From: Phycisphaeraceae bacterium
GTDB lineage: Bacteria > Planctomycetota > Phycisphaerae > Phycisphaerales > Phycisphaeraceae
Direction of reading: 5' to 3'
DNA: 64,000 bases
Assembly (NCBI GenBank): GCA_028277745.1
Contig: JANQFR010000014.1
Span: forward strand, 1-64,000
Each line of letters begins with the position of its first letter. Position 1 is the first letter of the stretch. The translations under genes were made by a program, and so were the position numbers. The notes beneath the pieces were generated by a model. That model was not told where the DNA came from. It saw only the letters and a list, made by a program, of their open reading frames with translations, and made no database searches. Below are positions 18,887-27,433 of this stretch, piece by piece.

Positions 18887-19813
18887 TCAGCCCGGCAGGA
18901 CGATCAGTTTGCCCCGCGTCCGGCCGGACCGGCTCTGTTTCAGCGCGGCGTGCGTCTCGGCGAGCGGGAAGGTCTGGGCGATCGTCGGCTTCACGTGCGG
19001 GGCGATCTCGGCGAGTTGTCGCCCGTTGGGGGCCACCATCAATGTCGCCGCCTTCACGCCGTGACGCTCCGCCAGTTCCGCAGAAGGCGGCGTCAAGATG
19101 CTCACCAGAAAACCGCCGGGTTTGAGCACGCCAAACGAACGGGCCTGGGTGTCGCCGCCGATGGTGTCATAAACCACATCGACGTCTCGAACGGCCTCTT
19201 CAAACGCGGTGGTCCGATAATCGATGAATTCATCGGCGCCCAACGACCGGACGAACGCCTCGTTCGCGCCCGACGCGGTCCCGATGACCGTCGCGCCCCG
19301 GGCCTTGGCCAGTTGAACCGCCGCCGACCCGACCCCGCCCGCCGCGGCGTGGATCAGCACAGTCTGGCCGGCGCCCAGACCGGCCGTGTCAAAGAGGGCC
19401 TGCGCGGAAGTCAGGGCGCCGACCGGGATCGCCGCGGCTTCTTCGTGTGACAAATCGCCCGGCTTGGCCGCGATCTCGTCCGGCAACGCGATCACGTAAT
19501 GCGCATAGGCGCCAAACCGCATCAGGCTGAGGTAACCGAACACAGCATCGCCCGTCGCGAAGCCTTCAACCCCTTCGCCGACCTCGGCGATCACGCCCGA
19601 CACCTCGCAGCCGAGCGCCATGGGCAGCGTGTGGTTAAACGCCTCTTTGCTGAAACCCTCGGCGATCTTCCAGTCGACCGGGTTCACCCCGGCGGCCTTC
19701 ATCTCGATCAACACTTCCCCTACGCCAGGCGCGGGCCGGGCGACCTCCTCCACGCGAAGGCCGTCAATCCCCACGTGTTCGTGCATCCGCACCGCTTGCA
19801 TCGTCTGACTCAT
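18887..19813 (-). CDS. zinc-free medium-chain dehydrogenase (quinone-oxidoreductase type)
   Basis: 308 residues. The GroES-like part (residues 1-125) carries [20 protein letters not shown] and [18 protein letters not shown]; the Rossmann part has [20 protein letters not shown] and [16 protein letters not shown]. No structural or catalytic zinc cysteines are seen, so it belongs to the zeta-crystallin-like NADPH-dependent reductases that act on quinones or alpha,beta-unsaturated carbonyls. It follows the SDR gene but a terminator (19857-19879) separates them. Located in the region controlled by the TetR-type regulator, it may detoxify electrophiles; this is inference. Confidence 0.88.
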
Positions 19814-19911: not shown

Positions 19912-20682
19912 TTAGATCGCGGTGAACCCGCCGTCGACGGTGATGCTCTGGCCGGTCACGAACGACGCGTCGTCCGACGCGAGCCACGCGACGGAGTGGG
20001 CGATCTCTTCGGGCTTACCCAGTCGGCCGATCGGGTGCATCGAGATCATCATGTCCAGCATCTCCTTCGCCTGACCCGGGTCCTCGCCGGTGAACCGCTC
20101 GAGCATCTCGGTCTCGATCCCGCCCGGGCTGACGGCGTTGACGCGGACGCCGGCCTTGGCGAACTCGAGGGCCGCGGTCTTGGTCAGGCCCATCACCGCG
20201 TGCTTGGAGGCGACGTACATCCCGTGCTGGGGGAAGCCGATGTGCCCGGCGATGGATGAATTATTGATGATCGACCCGCCCCCCGAATCGAGCATGGCCG
20301 GGATCTGGTGCTTCATCGAGAAGACCACGCCCAGGACGTTGATGTCGAAGATGAAGCGGTAGTTCTCTTCGGTGTCTTGGATCGTCGTGGCGGTCGCGCC
20401 CTCGACGCCGGCGTTGTTGAAGCCGATGTGCAGCCCGCCGTAGGCGTCCACCGCGTGCTTGACCAGGGCCTTGACCTGGTCTTCGTGGGTGACGTCGGTC
20501 TTGAGGAAGGCCGCCTCTCCGCCGGCGTCCTTGATGAGCTGGACCGTCTCCTGGCCGGCGGCCTCGTTGCGGTTGCCGATGACGACCTTGGCGCCGTCGG
20601 CGGCGAGGCGGATCGCGCTGGCCCGGCCGATGCCGGTGCCGCCGCCGGTCACCAGGGCCACTTTGTTGTCAAGTCTTCCCAT
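19912..20682 (-). CDS. short-chain dehydrogenase/reductase
   Basis: 256 residues, classical SDR. The cofactor motif is GGGTGIG (residues 13-19), the structural NNAG is at about 88-91, the catalytic Ser is in IINNSSIAGHIGF and Tyr-x3-Lys is in YVASKHAVMG. The C-terminus SDDASFVTGQSITVDGGFTA is typical of glucose 1-dehydrogenase-like and related NAD(P)-dependent members. It begins 32 nt after the RND pump gene on the same strand and ends at a terminator, so it is likely the last gene of the efflux operon. Substrate unknown. Confidence 0.92.
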   Translation of the reverse strand: MGRLDNKVALVTGGGTGIGRASAIRLAADGAKVVIGNRNEAAGQETVQLIKDAGGEAAFLKTDVTHEDQVKALVKHAVDAYGGLHIGFNNAGVEGATATTIQDTEENYRFIFDINVLGVVFSMKHQIPAMLDSGGGSIINNSSIAGHIGFPQHGMYVASKHAVMGLTKTAALEFAKAGVRVNAVSPGGIETEMLERFTGEDPGQAKEMLDMMISMHPIGRLGKPEEIAHSVAWLASDDASFVTGQSITVDGGFTAI

Positions 20683-20714: not shown

Positions 20715-23700
20715 TTAGGCGGTCGTCGCCGCCACGGGGGCGGCCTCGACCTTCGAATCATGTTTTTTCTGTGAACGCGACCGCAGGTCGAACAGCACGC
20801 TCAACACGGTCGGCACAAGCACGAGGGTGAACACCGTCGACACGATCAGCCCGCCGATCACCACCGCGCCCAGGCCGCGGTACAACTCGCTGCCCGAACC
20901 GGGCATCAGCACCAGCGGCATCATCCCGCCCACGCTCGTCATCGTGCTCATCAGGATCGGCCGCACCCGACTGATCACCGACTCGCGGATCGCCTCCCGC
21001 GGCGAGAGCGAGGCGTCCTGCCGCATGAAGTTCAGCGTCTGTTCCACGATCAGGATCGCGTTGTTCACCACCACCCCCGCCAGGATGACAAACCCCAGGA
21101 TCGTCAGGATGTCCAGGTTCTGCACCGGCAGATACCGGTCAGCAACCGACCACTGGTGCACCAGGAAAAGCCCCACGAACCCGCCGAAGGTCGCCAGCGG
21201 CACGCTGACCATGATCACCAGCGGGTACGACCAGCTCTGGAACAGCACAACCATCACCAGGTAAACCACCATCAGGGCCATGAACAGCGAGCTGGTGAAC
21301 GTGCCGAACAGCGAGCCGTCGCCCATCAACGACTGCTGGACCTCCTTGAGCTTGCCCGCCGAGCCGGCGAGCTTGACGTCGACCGTGGGCTGAATGCCGC
21401 CCAGCTCGCGCAGCTCCGCGGTCATGCTGTCCACCTGCTCGATCGCCTCGCCCAGCGGCAGGTCCGCCGGCGGGGTGAACTGCAGGGTCACCGCACGCAG
21501 ACGGTCGACGTGCTTGATCTGGTTGGGCTCGACGATGCGGTGAACCTCGGCGACACTCTGCAGGTCGACGGTCCTCCCATCGGGCGTGGCGATCGGCGCC
21601 TGCATCAGCGCCTCGATCGGCTGGTCGCCCAGCGCCGCGGGCGAGATGATCTTGAGGTCCTTCAACTCGCCGCCGACCTGGAACTGGCGGGGCAGGAAGA
21701 TGCCGTCGCCGTTGGCCTGCACCGCCAGGCCGACGTCGCGCCGCGACATGCCCAGCTCGCGCAGCCGCTCGTCGTTGGGGATGATGCGCAGCTCGGGCGC
21801 GGGCAGCGCGAAGTTGGCCGGCTCGGGCGTCACGCTGTACGGGCCGAACGATTCGATCAGCCGCCCCATCAACGCCGCGGCCGAATCGCTGACCTGACCC
21901 AGGTCGTCGCCGGTCAGGTCGATCTTGATCGCCGAGCCGGTCGTGCCGCCCGTGCGGAAGAGCGGGAACTGAAACGAGAACGCGAACACGTCCGGCGCCG
22001 CGGCGCCGGCGACCGCGTGGTTCATCAGCGGCAACGCATCGACCGTTCGCTTCTTGTCGTCGCTGATCGCCACCTGGAACACCCGCCCGTCCCACGCCAC
22101 GAGGAAGTAGTGATCCAGCTCTGGGGGCAGGACCATGTCCTCGTCGCCGGGGCCGATCGGCAGCGGGACCCGCCGGTCCACGCCGTCGCCCGCGGTTTCC
22201 ACGCCGAACCGCGTGCCCGCGATCTCCCACGACGGCCGGATCCGCTCTTCCATCCGCTCGCCGATCTCCGACAACTGATCGACGTTGTAGTCCGGCGGGG
22301 GGATGAGCACGCTGAAGACGATGTTGCGGTTGCCTCGCGGCAGGTAGTCCATCGGCGGCAGCAGGAGGTAGATGCCCACGAGCGTGACCGCCGCGAACCC
22401 CGCGATGACCGCCAGCCGTCTCGTCCAGCCCCCGGTCAGGCGGTACACCAGGCCGCCGATGAACTGCGGCATGTGCCTGAGGTTGCCCAGCGCCGCGACC
22501 GGCCGGGCCAGCCGGCGCGGCAGCCGCGGGGCGGGCCGCCCGTCCCGGGCCGGCTTCGGCTGAGCCTTGGGGCTGAGGATCAGGCCCGCCGCCGACGGGA
22601 TCACCGTCAGCGACACGATCAGGCTCACCGCCACCGCCGACATGATCGCCAGCGCGATGTCGCGGAACAACTGACCCGCCGACTCCTGGATCAGCAGGAT
22701 CGGGAAGAACACCACCAGTGTTGTCATCGTCGACGCCACCACTGCGCCGCCGACCTCCTTGGTCCCTTCCACCGCCGCCCGCCGCACGGGTTTGCCCATC
22801 TCCAAGTGACGGAAGATGTTCTCGATCACCACGATCGCGTTGTCGACCACCATCCCCGTGGCGAACGCCATCCCCGCGAGCGAGATGATGTTGATCGACC
22901 GGCCCAGCGCCACCAGGATCACCATCGACGCGATCACCGAGATCGGGATCGCCACCGCGATGATGCCGATCGTGCGCAGCGACCGCAGGAACAGCAGCAG
23001 CGTCAGCACCGCCAGCGACCCGCCGACGAGAATATTGCTCTGCACCAGATCGATCGCGTCAATCACGTAGGTCGTCGAGTCGTAGGTCTGCACCAGCTCG
23101 AGCGTGCCGTTGAGGCCCAGCTCCCTGGCGTGCTGGTCGAGCAGCCCGCCCGGCGCGTTGAGGGCGGCGACCTCGGCCTGGATCTCGGCCATGGTCTCGA
23201 GCAGGTTGCCCCCGCTCTCGAGCTGGAAGTTGAAAAACGGCATGCGGTGGCCGCGGGCGCGGACCCACTCGATCATCTCCTTGTGCGTCGGCACGACCTC
23301 TGCCAGGTCGCGCAGGTAAGTCGGCCCGGCCTCGTCACGCCGCACCACCACGTCGCCGACCCGCTCCACGTCGTAAAAACGCCCCACCGCCCGCACGCGG
23401 ATATCGCTCTTACCCTCCGGCAGCCGGCCGGCCGAGTAGTTGTCGTTGCTCAGGTCCAGCGCTTCCACCAGCTCCGCCCAGGTGATCCCCCGCTGGGCCA
23501 ACGCGACCGGGTCCACCCGGATGTGCACCTCGGCCTCACGGGCCCCGCGGATGCCCACCTGCGCCACCCCGGTCGCCCGCTCGAAACGCGGACGCAGCCG
23601 ACGCTCCATGAAGTCGTACAGCACCGACGGGTCGAACTCCGGATCGGTCGACGCCAGCCCGATCCACGCGATGTAGTCCACGCTCTCGGGATCGATGTCC

Positions 23701-24086
23701 TCCACCTGCGGCTCGTCCACGCCCTCGGGGTAGCCCGGCACTTCGCCGAGTTTCTGGTCCACCTCGGCCATCGCCTGCTCGATGTCGGTCCCGGTGCGGA
23801 ACTCCAGCCTCACCTGGCCCTGGCCGGCCTGGCTGATGCTTGTCATCGCCGCCAGGCCGGACAAGTCACCCAGCCGCTTCTCCTGCTCTTCGATCACGTC
23901 GCTCTCGATCTCGGTGGGCGAGGCGTTTTCCCAGGTCGTGGTCACCGAGATGACCACCGAATCGACCTCGGGCGTCATGCGGATCGGCACGGAGGTGATG
24001 GCGATGACGCCGGCGATCAGGGCGAGGATGACGCCGACGGCAACGGTGATGGGTTGCTTCACGGCCAGATCGATCAGGGTGTTCAT
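20715..24086 (-). CDS. RND family multidrug-type efflux transporter (HAE1/AcrB-like)
   Basis: 1123 residues, close to the family length. Starts MNTLIDLAVKQPITVAVGVI, the first of twelve membrane helices. The two periplasmic porter and docking regions lie at about 35-340 and 575-870. The TM4 segment reads GMVVDNAIVVIENIFRHLE with one Asp where AcrB has two adjacent Asp, a variation common in uncharacterised HAE1 members. TM10-12 end with RPILMSTMTSVGGMMPLVLM. It exports small amphipathic compounds using proton entry, together with the adaptor encoded just upstream; no outer-membrane factor gene is present. Expression is probably set by the TetR protein at 25557-26147. Confidence 0.95.
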   Translation of the reverse strand: MNTLIDLAVKQPITVAVGVILALIAGVIAITSVPIRMTPEVDSVVISVTTTWENASPTEIESDVIEEQEKRLGDLSGLAAMTSISQAGQGQVRLEFRTGTDIEQAMAEVDQKLGEVPGYPEGVDEPQVEDIDPESVDYIAWIGLASTDPEFDPSVLYDFMERRLRPRFERATGVAQVGIRGAREAEVHIRVDPVALAQRGITWAELVEALDLSNDNYSAGRLPEGKSDIRVRAVGRFYDVERVGDVVVRRDEAGPTYLRDLAEVVPTHKEMIEWVRARGHRMPFFNFQLESGGNLLETMAEIQAEVAALNAPGGLLDQHARELGLNGTLELVQTYDSTTYVIDAIDLVQSNILVGGSLAVLTLLLFLRSLRTIGIIAVAIPISVIASMVILVALGRSINIISLAGMAFATGMVVDNAIVVIENIFRHLEMGKPVRRAAVEGTKEVGGAVVASTMTTLVVFFPILLIQESAGQLFRDIALAIMSAVAVSLIVSLTVIPSAAGLILSPKAQPKPARDGRPAPRLPRRLARPVAALGNLRHMPQFIGGLVYRLTGGWTRRLAVIAGFAAVTLVGIYLLLPPMDYLPRGNRNIVFSVLIPPPDYNVDQLSEIGERMEERIRPSWEIAGTRFGVETAGDGVDRRVPLPIGPGDEDMVLPPELDHYFLVAWDGRVFQVAISDDKKRTVDALPLMNHAVAGAAAPDVFAFSFQFPLFRTGGTTGSAIKIDLTGDDLGQVSDSAAALMGRLIESFGPYSVTPEPANFALPAPELRIIPNDERLRELGMSRRDVGLAVQANGDGIFLPRQFQVGGELKDLKIISPAALGDQPIEALMQAPIATPDGRTVDLQSVAEVHRIVEPNQIKHVDRLRAVTLQFTPPADLPLGEAIEQVDSMTAELRELGGIQPTVDVKLAGSAGKLKEVQQSLMGDGSLFGTFTSSLFMALMVVYLVMVVLFQSWSYPLVIMVSVPLATFGGFVGLFLVHQWSVADRYLPVQNLDILTILGFVILAGVVVNNAILIVEQTLNFMRQDASLSPREAIRESVISRVRPILMSTMTSVGGMMPLVLMPGSGSELYRGLGAVVIGGLIVSTVFTLVLVPTVLSVLFDLRSRSQKKHDSKVEAAPVAATTA

Positions 24087-24208: not shown

Positions 24209-25504
24209 TTAGGAGGCCGGCGTGGCCAGGGCGAGCCGGGTGTTGGGACGCAGGCGCTGATTGCCTTCGATGACCACCAGGTCGCCGGGGGCGAGCACGT
24301 CCCCGCCGATCACCACGCGGTCGGCGGTCTCGAAGAGGATGCGGACCGGGGTGTGGACCGCGATGCGCTGGCCCGCCTCGTCGAGCCCGGCGAGGAAGAC
24401 GTGGGCGCCGCGGGCCGTGCGGACCACCGCGTCCTTGGGCACGCTGGTGTACTCATCGCGCTGACCGGCGGGCACCCAGGCCGTCACCGACATGCCCGGC
24501 GAGAAGCGGCCGCCCTGATCATCCATCTCAACCACCACCGCGAACGTCCGGGCCCGCGGGTCCACCTGCGGCACCACGCGGACACGCGTCGACGCCACGT
24601 GCGCCCCGGACGCCTGGACATCCACCGTGATCTCATTGGCGTGCGCGCCCACCGCGTCGGCAAGCCGCTCGGGCGTCTCCAGCCACGCCTCGATCATCCC
24701 GGTCGACACGACCGTCACCACCGGATCGCCGGCCGACAGCCACTCGCCCGGCTCGGCGTGCCGCTGCACCACCCGGCCGTCGAAGGGGGCGCGGATCACC
24801 GCGTCGTCCAGACGGACCTGCAGCAGCTCGACCCGGGCGCCGATCCGCTCCAGCTCGCGCTCGGACGCGTTGAGCCGGGCCTCGGCCACGCCGACCGCGG
24901 TGCGGGCGTCGCGCAGCTCCTTGTCGTGCGCCGCGCTGTTGGCGGCCAGCTGGTTGAGGATCGTCAGGTCCCGCTGGGCCAGGTCGAGCTGGACGCTCAT
25001 CTCGTCGATCCGGGCCCGCGTCACGTCGGCGTCGGCGCGGGCCTCGTCGAGCTGGGCCGCCAGCCGCCGGGCGTCGATCCGCGCCAGGACCTGGCCCTTC
25101 TCGACCCGGTCGGCCTCGTTGACCGCGACCTCCGTGATGCGACCTTCTTCGAGCACCGCGATGTCCGCACGGGACGCCGCCCGCAGGCTGCCGGTGACGC
25201 GCTGGTGAGCCTGGATCGGCCCGACCTCGACCTCGGCGGTGCGCACCGTGGCCTGGCCGAACGCGGGGACGGCGGCGAGCGCCATGACCGCCAGCCCCAT
25301 CAACGCCGGCTGGGCCATCCGCCGGATCCGGTCGGCCCGCTTGGCGTACTCCAGCGAGGCGAGGATCCGCCCCGCCAGCGCGAAATCGAGCTGCCGGCGC
25401 CGGGCCTTGGCCAGCAACGCCTGGGCCCGGCTGCTCATCAGGAATGCTTCGGTGTTTGCCTCGCTGTTCGCCTCACTCGAGCTGTTTTTCGTTTGATGTC
25501 GCAT
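24209..25504 (-). CDS. RND efflux periplasmic adaptor (membrane fusion protein)
   Basis: 431 residues; GAGGAAGG precedes the ATG at 25504. There is an unusually long cytoplasmic-type N-terminus (about 65 residues, Glu/Arg-rich) before the hydrophobic signal or anchor MAQPALMGLAVMALAAVPAF. The lipoyl half-motifs GRITEVAVNEADRVEKGQVL and DDAVIRAPFDGRVVQRHAEP flank a coiled-coil hairpin at about 155-235; beta-barrel and membrane-proximal domains follow. It links the RND pump to the outer membrane. The operator at 25524-25538 sits directly in front of it. The N-terminal extension could indicate that the true start is the internal Met at 87 (MAQPALMG is near residue 63). Confidence 0.92.
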   Translation of the reverse strand: MRHQTKNSSSEANSEANTEAFLMSSRAQALLAKARRRQLDFALAGRILASLEYAKRADRIRRMAQPALMGLAVMALAAVPAFGQATVRTAEVEVGPIQAHQRVTGSLRAASRADIAVLEEGRITEVAVNEADRVEKGQVLARIDARRLAAQLDEARADADVTRARIDEMSVQLDLAQRDLTILNQLAANSAAHDKELRDARTAVGVAEARLNASERELERIGARVELLQVRLDDAVIRAPFDGRVVQRHAEPGEWLSAGDPVVTVVSTGMIEAWLETPERLADAVGAHANEITVDVQASGAHVASTRVRVVPQVDPRARTFAVVVEMDDQGGRFSPGMSVTAWVPAGQRDEYTSVPKDAVVRTARGAHVFLAGLDEAGQRIAVHTPVRILFETADRVVIGGDVLAPGDLVVIEGNQRLRPNTRLALATPAS

Positions 25505-25523
25505 TTTTAACCTTCCTCTAAAA

Positions 25524-25538
25524 TAGACCGGTCGTCTA
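25524..25538. promoter_or_regulatory. TetR-type operator in front of the adaptor gene
   Basis: TAGAC-5nt-GTCTA (TAGACCGGTCGTCTA) matches the site at 26162-26176 except for one spacer base. It is placed 20 nt upstream of the adaptor start, suitable for repression of the pump operon by the TetR protein. Confidence 0.75.
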
Positions 25539-25556
25539 GTTTTCGTCCAAAAAAAA

Positions 25557-26147
25557 TCAGGGTCTCAACAGTTCGCTGAACACGTTCTCGATGAACCGCT
25601 CGATCGGCTCAACGCTCTGGGCCAGCTGCACGTGCAGCGCGGTGCCCTCCCAAGCGTTGAAGATGAACTCGGCCAGGGCGTCGGCGTTGCGGGTCGGGTC
25701 GATCTCGCCCGCCTCCTGGGCTTCGCGGATGCACTGGGCCATCTCGAACCGCCAGCGGTCCATGCCGCGTTTGAGGGCGATCCGCATCGGCTGGCTCAGG
25801 GTCGCCACGTCCATCCCGAGCTTGGCGGCGAGGCAGGTTTGTTCAAAGCCGTTCTCGGCGTACCAATCCCGGCCCTTCTGGAAATAGGCCCGCAGCCGCT
25901 CGATCGGCGTCTTGTCCGGGTCGGTCAGGATCTGGTGCTTCAGGTCCGCGTACTTCTGGGTGAACGACTCGATGATCGCCACGCCGAAGTCTTCCTTGCT
26001 CTTGAAATAGTGGTAGAACGAGCCCTTGGGCACGCCGGCCCGGTCGAGGATCTCTTTCAGGCCGCAGGCGTTGTAGCTCTTGGCCGTCATCGCCTCGATC
26101 CCGCACTCGATCAGCCGCTCTCTCGTGTTGGTTTCAGTCACGATCAT
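25557..26147 (-). CDS. TetR family transcriptional regulator, NemR/AcuR-like
   Basis: 196 residues. Helix-turn-helix at about 27-47 with GLKEILDRAGVPKGSFYHYF and SKEDFGVAIIESF, the strongly conserved TetR signature. The single mid-protein Cys105 (GFEQTCLAAKLG) aligns in position with the redox-sensing Cys106 that I recall for E. coli NemR, which controls reduction of electrophiles. The gene is flanked by two identical-type sites (25524 and 26162), so it probably represses both itself and the downstream adaptor-pump-SDR operon. Electrophile or quinone sensing would fit the two oxidoreductases nearby; this is an inference. Confidence 0.92.
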   Translation of the reverse strand: MIVTETNTRERLIECGIEAMTAKSYNACGLKEILDRAGVPKGSFYHYFKSKEDFGVAIIESFTQKYADLKHQILTDPDKTPIERLRAYFQKGRDWYAENGFEQTCLAAKLGMDVATLSQPMRIALKRGMDRWRFEMAQCIREAQEAGEIDPTRNADALAEFIFNAWEGTALHVQLAQSVEPIERFIENVFSELLRP

Positions 26148-26161
26148 TTCACCTACAGTAT

Positions 26162-26176
26162 TAGACCAGTCGTCTA
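26162..26176. promoter_or_regulatory. TetR-type operator in front of its own gene
   Basis: TAGACCAGTCGTCTA: inverted TAGAC/GTCTA arms with a 5-nt spacer, 15 nt upstream of the TetR start. It matches the site at 25524-25538 at 14 of 15 bases, which is strong evidence for an autoregulatory binding site. Confidence 0.78.
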
Positions 26177-26320
26177 GAATGTCAAGCCGGTTGAATCAAA
26201 AAATGTTCCCGTCCGCCGCCCCGCCGCCTCACTTCAGCTCCAAGCGCAAGCATCACGGGGACTTATGAGCTATCATCCCATCGGATTTTTTACGCTCTGC
26301 CCTTCAGGAACGAGAAAAAA

Positions 26321-27433
26321 ATGCCTCAAACCCAGTTCCCACCCCAGCGCCTGCTGCTCGGCCCGGGCCCCAGCCCCGTGCCCGCGCGGGTGCTCGAGGC
26401 CCTCGGCCGGCCGACCGTCGGGCACCTCGACCCGCATTTCCTGGGCCTGATGGACGAGGTCCGCGCCATGCTCCAGGGCCTGTTTCAGACCGCCAACGAG
26501 ATGACCCTCGCCGTCTCCGGGACGGGCATGGCGGGCGCCGAGTGCCTGATGGTCAACCTGGTCGAGCCCGGCGCCAGGGTGCTGGTCGGGGTCAACGGCG
26601 TCTTCGGGGGCCGGCTGGTCGACATCGCCCAGCGTTGCGGCGGCGAGGTCGTCACCCTCGAAAAGCCCTGGGGGCAGGTCTTCGATCAGGACGCGGTGAT
26701 CGAGCGCGTGAAAGACCTCAAGCCGGACGTGGTCGCGCTGGTGCACGCCGAAACCTCGACCGGCGCCCACCAGCCGCTCGAGCGGATCGGCAAGGCGGTG
26801 CGCAAGGCCGGGGGGCTGTTCGTGGTCGACTGCGTCACCTCCCTCGGCGGCGCGCCGGTCAAGGTCGACGACTGGCACATCGACGCCGCGTACTCGGGCA
26901 CGCAGAAATGCCTCTCCTGCCCGCCGGGCCTCAGCCCGATCACCCTGTCGCCCCGCGCGGTCAAGCACATTGACAACCGCCAGGCCAAAATCCCTTCGTG
27001 GTATCTCGACCTCTCGATGGTCCGCAACTACTGGGGAGCCGAGCGCGCCTACCACCACACCGCGCCGGTTAACATGCTATACGCCCTCCACGAGGCCCTC
27101 GTGCTCGTGCACGAAGAAGGCCTCGACGCCCGATTCCAGCGGCACCGCGACGCGGCGGCCATGCTCTGGGAAGGGCTCGCCGACCTCGGCATGAGCCGGT
27201 GGTCCGACCCCGACCATTCACTGCCGATGCTCAACACCGTCGTCATCCCCGACGGCGTCGACGACGCGGTGGTCCGGTCCCGCCTGCTCCACGACTACGA
27301 CATCGAGATCGGCGGCGGCCTGGGCGCGGGCAAGGGCAAGGTCTGGCGCATCGGCCTGATGGGCCACGGCGCGCGGAAGCCGGTCGTCACCCTCGTCCTC
27401 GCGGCGCTGCGGGAGGTGCTGGCGGGCTCATAG
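26321..27433 (+). CDS. alanine-glyoxylate / serine-pyruvate type aminotransferase
   Basis: 370 residues, PLP-dependent class [21 protein letters not shown] at the start, [13 protein letters not shown] for the cofactor phosphate, the Asp in [12 protein letters not shown] that pairs with the pyridine nitrogen, and the Schiff-base lysine K196 in [12 protein letters not shown]. It transaminates glyoxylate or pyruvate using Ala or Ser, in photorespiration-like or glycine-serine metabolism. The start follows AGGAACGAG. It stands alone, divergent from the TetR gene. Its exact amino donor is not visible from the sequence. Confidence 0.93.

What the first reader, a model, noticed from the sequence alone, without database searches (positions are those of the whole stretch)
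24209..26176. Two near-identical TetR operators define an electrophile-type efflux regulon
TAGAC-5nt-GTCTA sites flank the TetR gene, in front of itself and of the adaptor gene. The regulator carries a Cys at position 105, like the sensor Cys106 I recall for NemR. Pump, SDR and quinone-oxidoreductase-like genes downstream suggest a response to reactive electrophiles or quinones rather than classic antibiotics.
Basis: partly seen in the sequence, partly recalled or inferred. Interest (0 to 1): 0.5.

Follow-up and report, generated by a model that had tools for sequence, protein, structure and literature searches.

The report
NemR-like repressor controlling an efflux pump
A bacterial gene switch related to E. 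coli's bleach and toxin sensor NemR sits next to a drug-pump operon, with one conserved DNA-binding site in front of itself and one in front of the pump; the layout is real and conserved in relatives, but what the switch senses is still a prediction.

Summary
Two 15-bp boxes (14 of 15 bases identical) lie in front of the tetR gene and in front of the adaptor gene, and they are the only exact copies in the 5.12-Mb genome. Their number is what chance gives; their placement and conservation are not. Across 111 related loci the same box recurs before tetR (41) and before the next gene (50), against 4 elsewhere. A search of 397 class genomes gives 8 exact matches, 7 of them beside this regulator. 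The box is the NemR/AcuR-type box (TAGAC...GTCTA) with a 5-bp spacer instead of 6. Family gene context favours electrophile detoxification, but Cys105 is not diagnostic: it is present in 111 of 111 relatives. NemR's electrophile cysteines (21, 116) and Lys175 are missing. The SDR and quinone-reductase-like genes are not a conserved part; adaptor plus RND pump are. New here: regulators linked to RND pumps carry a second cysteine, Cys28, at the helix-turn-helix (14 of 14, against 0 of 97 others), and a T-tract at a near-fixed distance precedes the pump-side box. Most likely this is an autoregulated NemR-type repressor rewired to an RND pump.

The parts
26162..26176 (-). operator 1: TAGACGACTGGTCTA on the coding strand, in front of tetR
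26157..26185 (-). promoter-like site for tetR: TTGACA, 17 nt (filled by operator 1), AATACT; predicted start of transcription within a few bases of the ATG, so tetR is probably leaderless or nearly so (inference)
   Evidence: 10 of 12 matches; 0.2 expected; layout
25557..26147 (-). TetR-family repressor, 196 aa, NemR/AcuR/CurR group; Cys15, 28, 105, 139
25549..25556 (-). T8 tract (coding strand) directly after the tetR stop codon; same place in relatives, 17-20 nt before operator 2 in most; UP-element-like, terminator tail, or both (inference)
25524..25538 (-). operator 2: TAGACGACCGGTCTA on the coding strand, in front of the adaptor gene
24209..25504 (-). RND periplasmic adaptor (membrane fusion protein), 431 aa, with an N-terminal extension of about 64 aa before the signal-like segment
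   Evidence: (TIGR01730 197 bits, cut-off 94.9)
20715..24086 (-). RND efflux permease, 1123 aa (AcrB/AcrD/AcrF family; nearest solved chain MdtB)
   Evidence: 57-71% identical in 10 relatives of the cassette
19912..20682 (-). SDR oxidoreductase, 32 bp after the pump gene; probably co-transcribed (inference); not a constant member of the cassette
18887..19813 (-). zinc-type MDR oxidoreductase, quinone-reductase-like by best (sub-threshold) NCBIfam hit; co-transcription unsure (98-bp gap)

Best explanation
A NemR/AcuR-group TetR dimer represses two promoters: its own, through operator 1 between -35 and -10, and that of the adaptor-RND pump operon, through operator 2. A reactive, probably thiol-reactive or Michael-acceptor-type compound (unsaturated carbonyl, quinone or similar) inactivates the repressor, so that repressor and pump are made together and the pump exports the compound or its conjugates. 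Steps and odds: both boxes are operators of this TetR (0.95; inferred from conservation, no binding shown); it represses tetR and the pump (0.85); the inducer is an electrophile or close kin (0.6); sensing is by cysteine modification (0.45), in which case Cys28 at the helix-turn-helix is as good a candidate as Cys105, alone or as a pair.
For: Box before tetR and before the next gene in many relatives, almost none elsewhere, in a fixed polarity (50 of 50 downstream; 34 of 41 upstream, 6 unclear, 1 reversed). 7 of 8 exact matches in 397 class genomes lie beside this regulator, control 0 (checked). Site 1 fills a promoter spacer. Box type shared with AcuR, where base changes gave constitutive expression (PMC3017554 passages), and with E. 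coli nemR. Adaptor plus pump conserved in 10 relatives. Relatives' first downstream genes are mainly enone, aldehyde, nitro or flavin reductases: 27 of 29 in the NemR clade. The nearest relative carries a glyoxalase-superfamily gene and an SDR inside the cassette. Cys28 in 14 of 14 RND-linked rows and 0 of 97 others.
Against: No binding or induction data. Cys105 is invariant in the group, hence uninformative. NemR's electrophile cysteines and Lys175 are absent, though Lys175 was dispensable in the Hypocrates sensor (PMC8748444 passages). No OYE or glyoxalase gene in this operon. Cys28 marks one lineage (1 change on the tree), so its tie to the pump may be shared descent. 43 of 111 loci lack an exact box in the zones searched, mostly distant relatives, plus two rows that lie at a contig end.
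Confidence: 0.6

Rival explanations
1. A reversible ligand, not cysteine chemistry, releases the repressor (as acrylate does for AcuR); Cys105 is structural and kept in the whole group.
For: Best, sub-threshold NCBIfam hit is AcuR and best solved relative is 3bru; Cys105 invariant in 111 of 111; NemR's other cysteines missing.
Against: Cys28 is added exactly in the pump-linked group; AltR and NemR need the equivalent cysteine (passages).
Confidence: 0.35
2. Classic multidrug regulator (AcrR/TtgR-like) for antibiotics or bile-like compounds.
For: The targets are an RND adaptor and pump; TetR regulators of RND pumps are common.
Against: Scores for AcrR and MtrR models are far below cut-off; the nearest kin outside the pump group have reductases next to them, not pumps.
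Confidence: 0.12
3. Operator 2 is not the operator of a second promoter but a roadblock or attenuator: the T-tract after tetR ends most transcripts and bound repressor blocks the rest, so pump mRNA comes by read-through from the tetR promoter.
For: T-tract 17-20 nt before the second box in 37 of 47 downstream sites against 7 of 51 upstream; clear hairpins before it in many NemR-clade loci and in E. coli nemR; no promoter-like hit at operator 2 in the window.
Against: Hairpin is weak or absent in most of the RND group (window -4.8 kcal/mol, no better than shuffles) while the T-tract and its spacing stay, which suits a promoter element better.
Confidence: 0.25
4. The two boxes are chance repeats.
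For: Count in the genome (2) equals the composition-based expectation (1.8).
Against: Position and conservation.
Confidence: 0.01

Closest known systems
E. coli NemR (nemR-nemA-gloA)
   Same: TetR_N + TetR_C_13-type protein, 31% identical; Cys106 = window Cys105; box TAGACCGACTGGTCTA before nemR; T-tract after nemR followed by a degenerate second box
   Different: Spacer 6 instead of 5; Cys21, 98, 116, 149, 153 and Lys175 not in the window protein; targets are reductase and glyoxalase, not a pump
Rhodobacter AcuR (acuR-acuI-dddL)
   Same: Best NCBIfam hit; box TAATAGAC-n6-GTCTATTA over the promoter; leaderless repressor gene (PMC3017554 passages)
   Different: Spacer 6; sensed compound acrylate; single promoter for the operon; hit below the equivalog cut-off (168 against 247 bits)
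Pseudomonas CurR-type regulator and PDB 3rd3/4l62
   Same: Close by sequence; same invariant Cys
   Different: Below the CurR cut-off (155 against 300 bits); no RND target seen in NemR-clade loci
Pantoea AltR
   Same: NemR homologue, repressor of its own promoter, one essential cysteine (passages)
   Different: Box CAATCTAC-N6-GTAGATTG; specific for thiosulfinates, not NEM or diamide
AcrR/AcrAB-type pump control
   Same: TetR repressor next to an RND adaptor and permease
   Different: Different TetR branch

Membership tests
NemR (equivalog sense) | TetR_N with TetR_C_13-type C-terminal domain | tested here: met
   PF00440 43.1 bits, PF16925 79.6 bits, both over cut-off
NemR (equivalog sense) | Cys106 equivalent | tested here: met
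   window Cys105; but 111 of 111 rows have it, so not diagnostic
NemR (equivalog sense) | Electrophile cysteines Cys21 and Cys116 | tested here: not met
   M and A at these places
NemR (equivalog sense) | Lys175 | tested here: not met
   Gln174
NemR (equivalog sense) | Linked nemA (OYE) and gloA | tested here: not met
   RND pump instead
NemR (equivalog sense) | Placement inside the NemR clade | tested here: inconclusive
   outside in the best tree (NemR clade 99*); AU p 0.22, inclusion not rejected
NemR/AcuR-type operator | TAGAC and GTCTA half-sites over the promoter | tested here: met
NemR/AcuR-type operator | 6-bp spacer as in nemR and acuR | tested here: not met
   5 bp; N5 is the commoner form in these relatives
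AcuR | NCBIfam equivalog cut-off | tested here: not met
   167.6 against 247 bits
CurR | NCBIfam equivalog cut-off | tested here: not met
   155.2 against 300 bits
Electrophile-responsive repressor | DNA release by electrophiles, dependent on cysteine | not testable with these tools
   needs binding and induction assays
Tripartite RND efflux system | adaptor and RND permease | tested here: met
Tripartite RND efflux system | outer-membrane factor in the operon | tested here: not met
   none among the operon's proteins; OEP (PF02321) stretches on four other contigs
NADPH:quinone reductase (downstream MDR gene) | curated NCBIfam cut-offs (PIG3, QOR) | tested here: not met
   174.9 against 296.8 and 120.2 against 348 bits

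The most novel reading that the evidence does not exclude
A lineage of NemR-group repressors was rewired from detoxifying reductases to an RND pump and in the same step gained a thiol (Cys28) at the foot of the DNA-reading helix-turn-helix, so that a reactive compound breaks DNA contact directly, rather than (or together with) acting through the universal Cys105; and the target promoter is a compact module of T-tract, about 10 nt, and a polar 15-bp operator.
Probability: 0.25. Interest if true: 0.55.

Novelty: new variant of a known kind. Interest (0 to 1): 0.38.

Why it matters
It links the NemR/AcuR group, known for switching on detoxifying enzymes, to export by an RND pump, in Phycisphaerae and in marine gammaproteobacteria. 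It shows that the 'sensor cysteine' shared with NemR cannot by itself be used to predict electrophile sensing, and points to a different cysteine that tracks with the pump. The conserved box gives a ready tag for finding such regulators and a simple reporter for asking what they sense.

Tried and rejected
Chance repeat: rejected by placement and footprinting, though the bare count is at chance. Wider regulon: with up to 3 mismatches the genome has 28 and 41 matches against 64 and 68 for the reversed pattern, and only one at 1 mismatch and two at 2, so no further sites were claimed; those three were not followed up. Cys105 as evidence for electrophile sensing: rejected as non-diagnostic. Lys175 loss as evidence against HOCl sensing: not used, since K-to-A left the Hypocrates sensor responsive. 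Terminator at the tetR end in the window: the hairpin is weak (-4.8 kcal/mol, z +0.6 against composition shuffles), so not claimed. The exact-word DNA search in papers returned 232 papers, 30 listed, none of the titles on TetR regulators; the other 202 were not seen. Searches for a NemR-type regulator of an RND pump in print listed none that I recognised as such; titles, abstract starts and a few passages were seen, not whole papers. Papers tell only what passages showed: PMC13178969, PMC9342713, PMC3017554, PMC3739934, PMC8748444, PMC7464077, PMC6790063, PMC5297802. The ORF-based neighbour list missed genes in GC-rich loci and was replaced by tblastn and by the next-gene pick (longest plus-strand ORF starting within 450 bp of the tetR stop; crude; no pick for L054). 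The test of one clade found the 14 Cys28 rows already together but with weak support (22). Rows dropped: L045, the same contig end as L009, was left out of the site counts but kept in the 111 rows. Several rows are near-copies (L094/L095, L075/L080), so counts are not independent events. The next-gene scans covered 29 NemR-clade rows, 37 of 38 further K/R-type rows and the 5 pump-less Q-type rows; the 21 most distant rows of the tree and L010, L012, L101 and L102 were not in them.

Full report
What is there. On the coding strand (minus) they read TAGACGACTGGTCTA before tetR and TAGACGACCGGTCTA before the adaptor gene, 14 of 15 bases alike. In the whole 5.12-Mb genome there are no other exact TAGAC-N5-GTCTA places. 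The count itself is no more than base composition predicts (about 1.8), so the case rests on placement and conservation.

Placement. Site 1 fills the 17-nt spacer of a TTGACA...AATACT promoter-like site, the only such hit in 851 bases, 0.2 expected. The predicted start would fall within a few bases of the tetR ATG, so tetR is probably leaderless or nearly so (inference), as shown for AcuR (PMC3017554 passages). Site 2 sits in the 52-bp gap between tetR and the adaptor gene, 18 bp after the tetR stop codon, after a T8 tract (25549-25556), and before a good ribosome-binding sequence and the adaptor ATG.

Conservation. I took 110 TetR rows (30 loci from a search of 397 class genomes, which include the window itself as L003; 80 from genome contigs) and E. 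coli NemR: 111 loci. An exact N5 box lies within 200 bp upstream of tetR in 41, within 400 bp downstream of it in 50, and only 4 lie elsewhere in roughly 1 Mb; an N6 box lies upstream in 8 (E. coli nemR among them) and downstream in 1; spacer 2 occurs upstream in 1, downstream in 2 and elsewhere twice; spacer 4 only elsewhere (4); spacers 3 and 7-10 give none; 43 of 111 loci have no exact box in the zones, mainly distant relatives, loci at contig ends (L009, L045) and loci with a changed end base (L007, L051). Polarity is fixed: 50 of 50 downstream boxes and 34 of 41 upstream boxes read TAGACGA... in the direction of transcription, 6 are unclear, 1 is reversed. An independent test without the protein: TAGACGACYGGTCTA in 397 class genomes gives 8 exact matches in 7 genomes, none for the reversed pattern; 7 of the 8 lie beside this regulator type (window twice, G062, G142, G148, G188, G245), and one (G020) has no TetR gene of this type near it. 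For G188 the regulator and the box lie at the ends of two different contigs, so its adjacency is inferred.

What the regulator is. It has TetR_N and TetR_C_13 domains. NCBIfam's best hits are AcuR and CurR, both below cut-off; the nearest solved chains are 3bru, 3rd3/4l62 and NemR 4yze. In the tree it pairs with L004 (98*), in a group next to the NemR clade (29 rows, 99*). The best tree puts it outside that clade, but forcing it inside is not rejected (AU p 0.22). The AlphaFold model (mean pLDDT 91.5) puts Cys28 just before helix 30-37, the first helix of the helix-turn-helix, and Cys105 just before helix 106-114.

Cysteines. But this Cys is in 111 of 111 rows and in all five solved relatives printed. 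According to passages of PMC3739934, PMC7464077 and PMC5297802, Cys106 serves the response to reactive chlorine, while Cys21 and Cys116 serve the response to electrophiles; the window has Met and Ala there, and Gln174 instead of Lys175. Lys175 may not matter: its loss left the Hypocrates sensor responsive (PMC8748444 passages). What does mark the pump-linked group is Cys28: 14 of 14 RND-linked rows have it, 0 of 97 others (NemR clade 0 of 29, Q-type rows without pump 0 of 5, the rest 0 of 63). Two of the 14 (L009, L045) are the same sequence at a contig end, whose pump link is inferred, and one (L007) neighbours a different RND pump (24% identical). On the tree this is one change, so descent alone could explain it. 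That Cys28 lies near the DNA backbone is recalled from other TetR-DNA structures, not tested.

Gene context. Adaptor and pump (pump 57-71% identical) follow the TetR in 10 relatives besides the window: L004/L122, L005/L123, L006/L124, L033, L035/L127, L036-L039/L128-L131 and L043/L132, from Phycisphaerae and from Algicola, Pseudoalteromonas and Thalassotalea. An SDR lies inside the cassette in L122 and L033, and L122 also has a glyoxalase-superfamily gene. The window's MDR has no counterpart in the DNA held for these loci. First downstream genes in the NemR clade (29 scanned): OYE 10, MDR of the ADH_N_2 type 9, iron alcohol dehydrogenase 6, nitroreductase 2; in 37 other loci: GroES-type MDR 14, SDR 4, OYE 2, flavin reductase 2, nitroreductase 1, other or none in the rest; in the five Q-type rows without pump: FMN reductase 3, DinB-like 1, nothing recognised 1. 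So the group as a whole sits beside reductive or thiol-linked detoxification genes, and the pump is the odd target. This is support by association for an electrophile-type inducer, no more.

T-tract. Before the second box, 37 of 47 downstream sites (one per locus, within 120 bp of the stop codon) have at least 6 T in 8 bases, starting 17-20 nt ahead of the box in most cases, against 7 of 51 upstream sites (Fisher p 6e-11, but the rows are related). Many NemR-clade loci, and E. coli nemR, have a hairpin right before it, as in an intrinsic terminator; most pump-linked loci have not (L007 is an exception), yet keep the tract and its distance. I read it as a promoter element that in some loci doubles as a terminator tail; an attenuator or roadblock is the rival.

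Spread. None of the 14 other genomes of the window's family in the sample has the box, and their best TetR matches are weak. The cassette looks sporadic, probably acquired horizontally (inference). The class is taken as Phycisphaerae because G188 contig C46 and the L045 record (Phycisphaerales UBA1845) have the same length and the same TetR sequence; this is an inference.

Verdict. Observation confirmed; interpretation partly supported. An autoregulated NemR/AcuR-group repressor with a 5-bp-spacer form of the group's operator most likely controls an RND pump. It is a new variant of a known kind, of moderate interest, mainly for the Cys28 signature and the conserved target-promoter module.

Noticed in passing
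L113 2120-2160 (E. coli K-12 nemR-nemA gap): At the nemR stop codon there is a GC-rich hairpin followed by T6 (-11.4 kcal/mol) and then CAGACGACCGGGAG, a degenerate copy of the second box at the place where relatives have it.
   Followed up: partly
L042, L048, L052, L055, L062, L063: Loci with an N6 box upstream of tetR and an N5 box downstream: one repressor apparently reads two spacings.
   Followed up: partly
window 25310-25504 (minus strand): The adaptor has an N-terminal extension of about 64 aa before its signal-like segment; a similar extension is seen in L122 and L127, while matches in L005 and L006 begin only at residue 66-67.
   Followed up: no
window 20715-24086: By eye, the pump reads VDNA and VVNNA where AcrB (recalled) has the proton-relay Asp-Asp and Lys; not aligned or tested.
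   Followed up: no
L125 (G089): Same TetR type with both boxes (one end base changed) next to a different RND pump (24% identical), perhaps a second capture of a pump.
   Followed up: partly
L100 7422-7436 and 7592-7606: Two further boxes, 170 bp apart, away from tetR in a Pseudomonas locus; possible extra target.
   Followed up: no
L153 1501-1515 (G020): Exact box without a related TetR, inside a short stretch with repeated CTGCG/CGGTCG words; looks like chance.
   Followed up: partly
window 26321-27433: Divergent class-V aminotransferase gene starting about 145 bp from operator 1; no box of its own.
   Followed up: no
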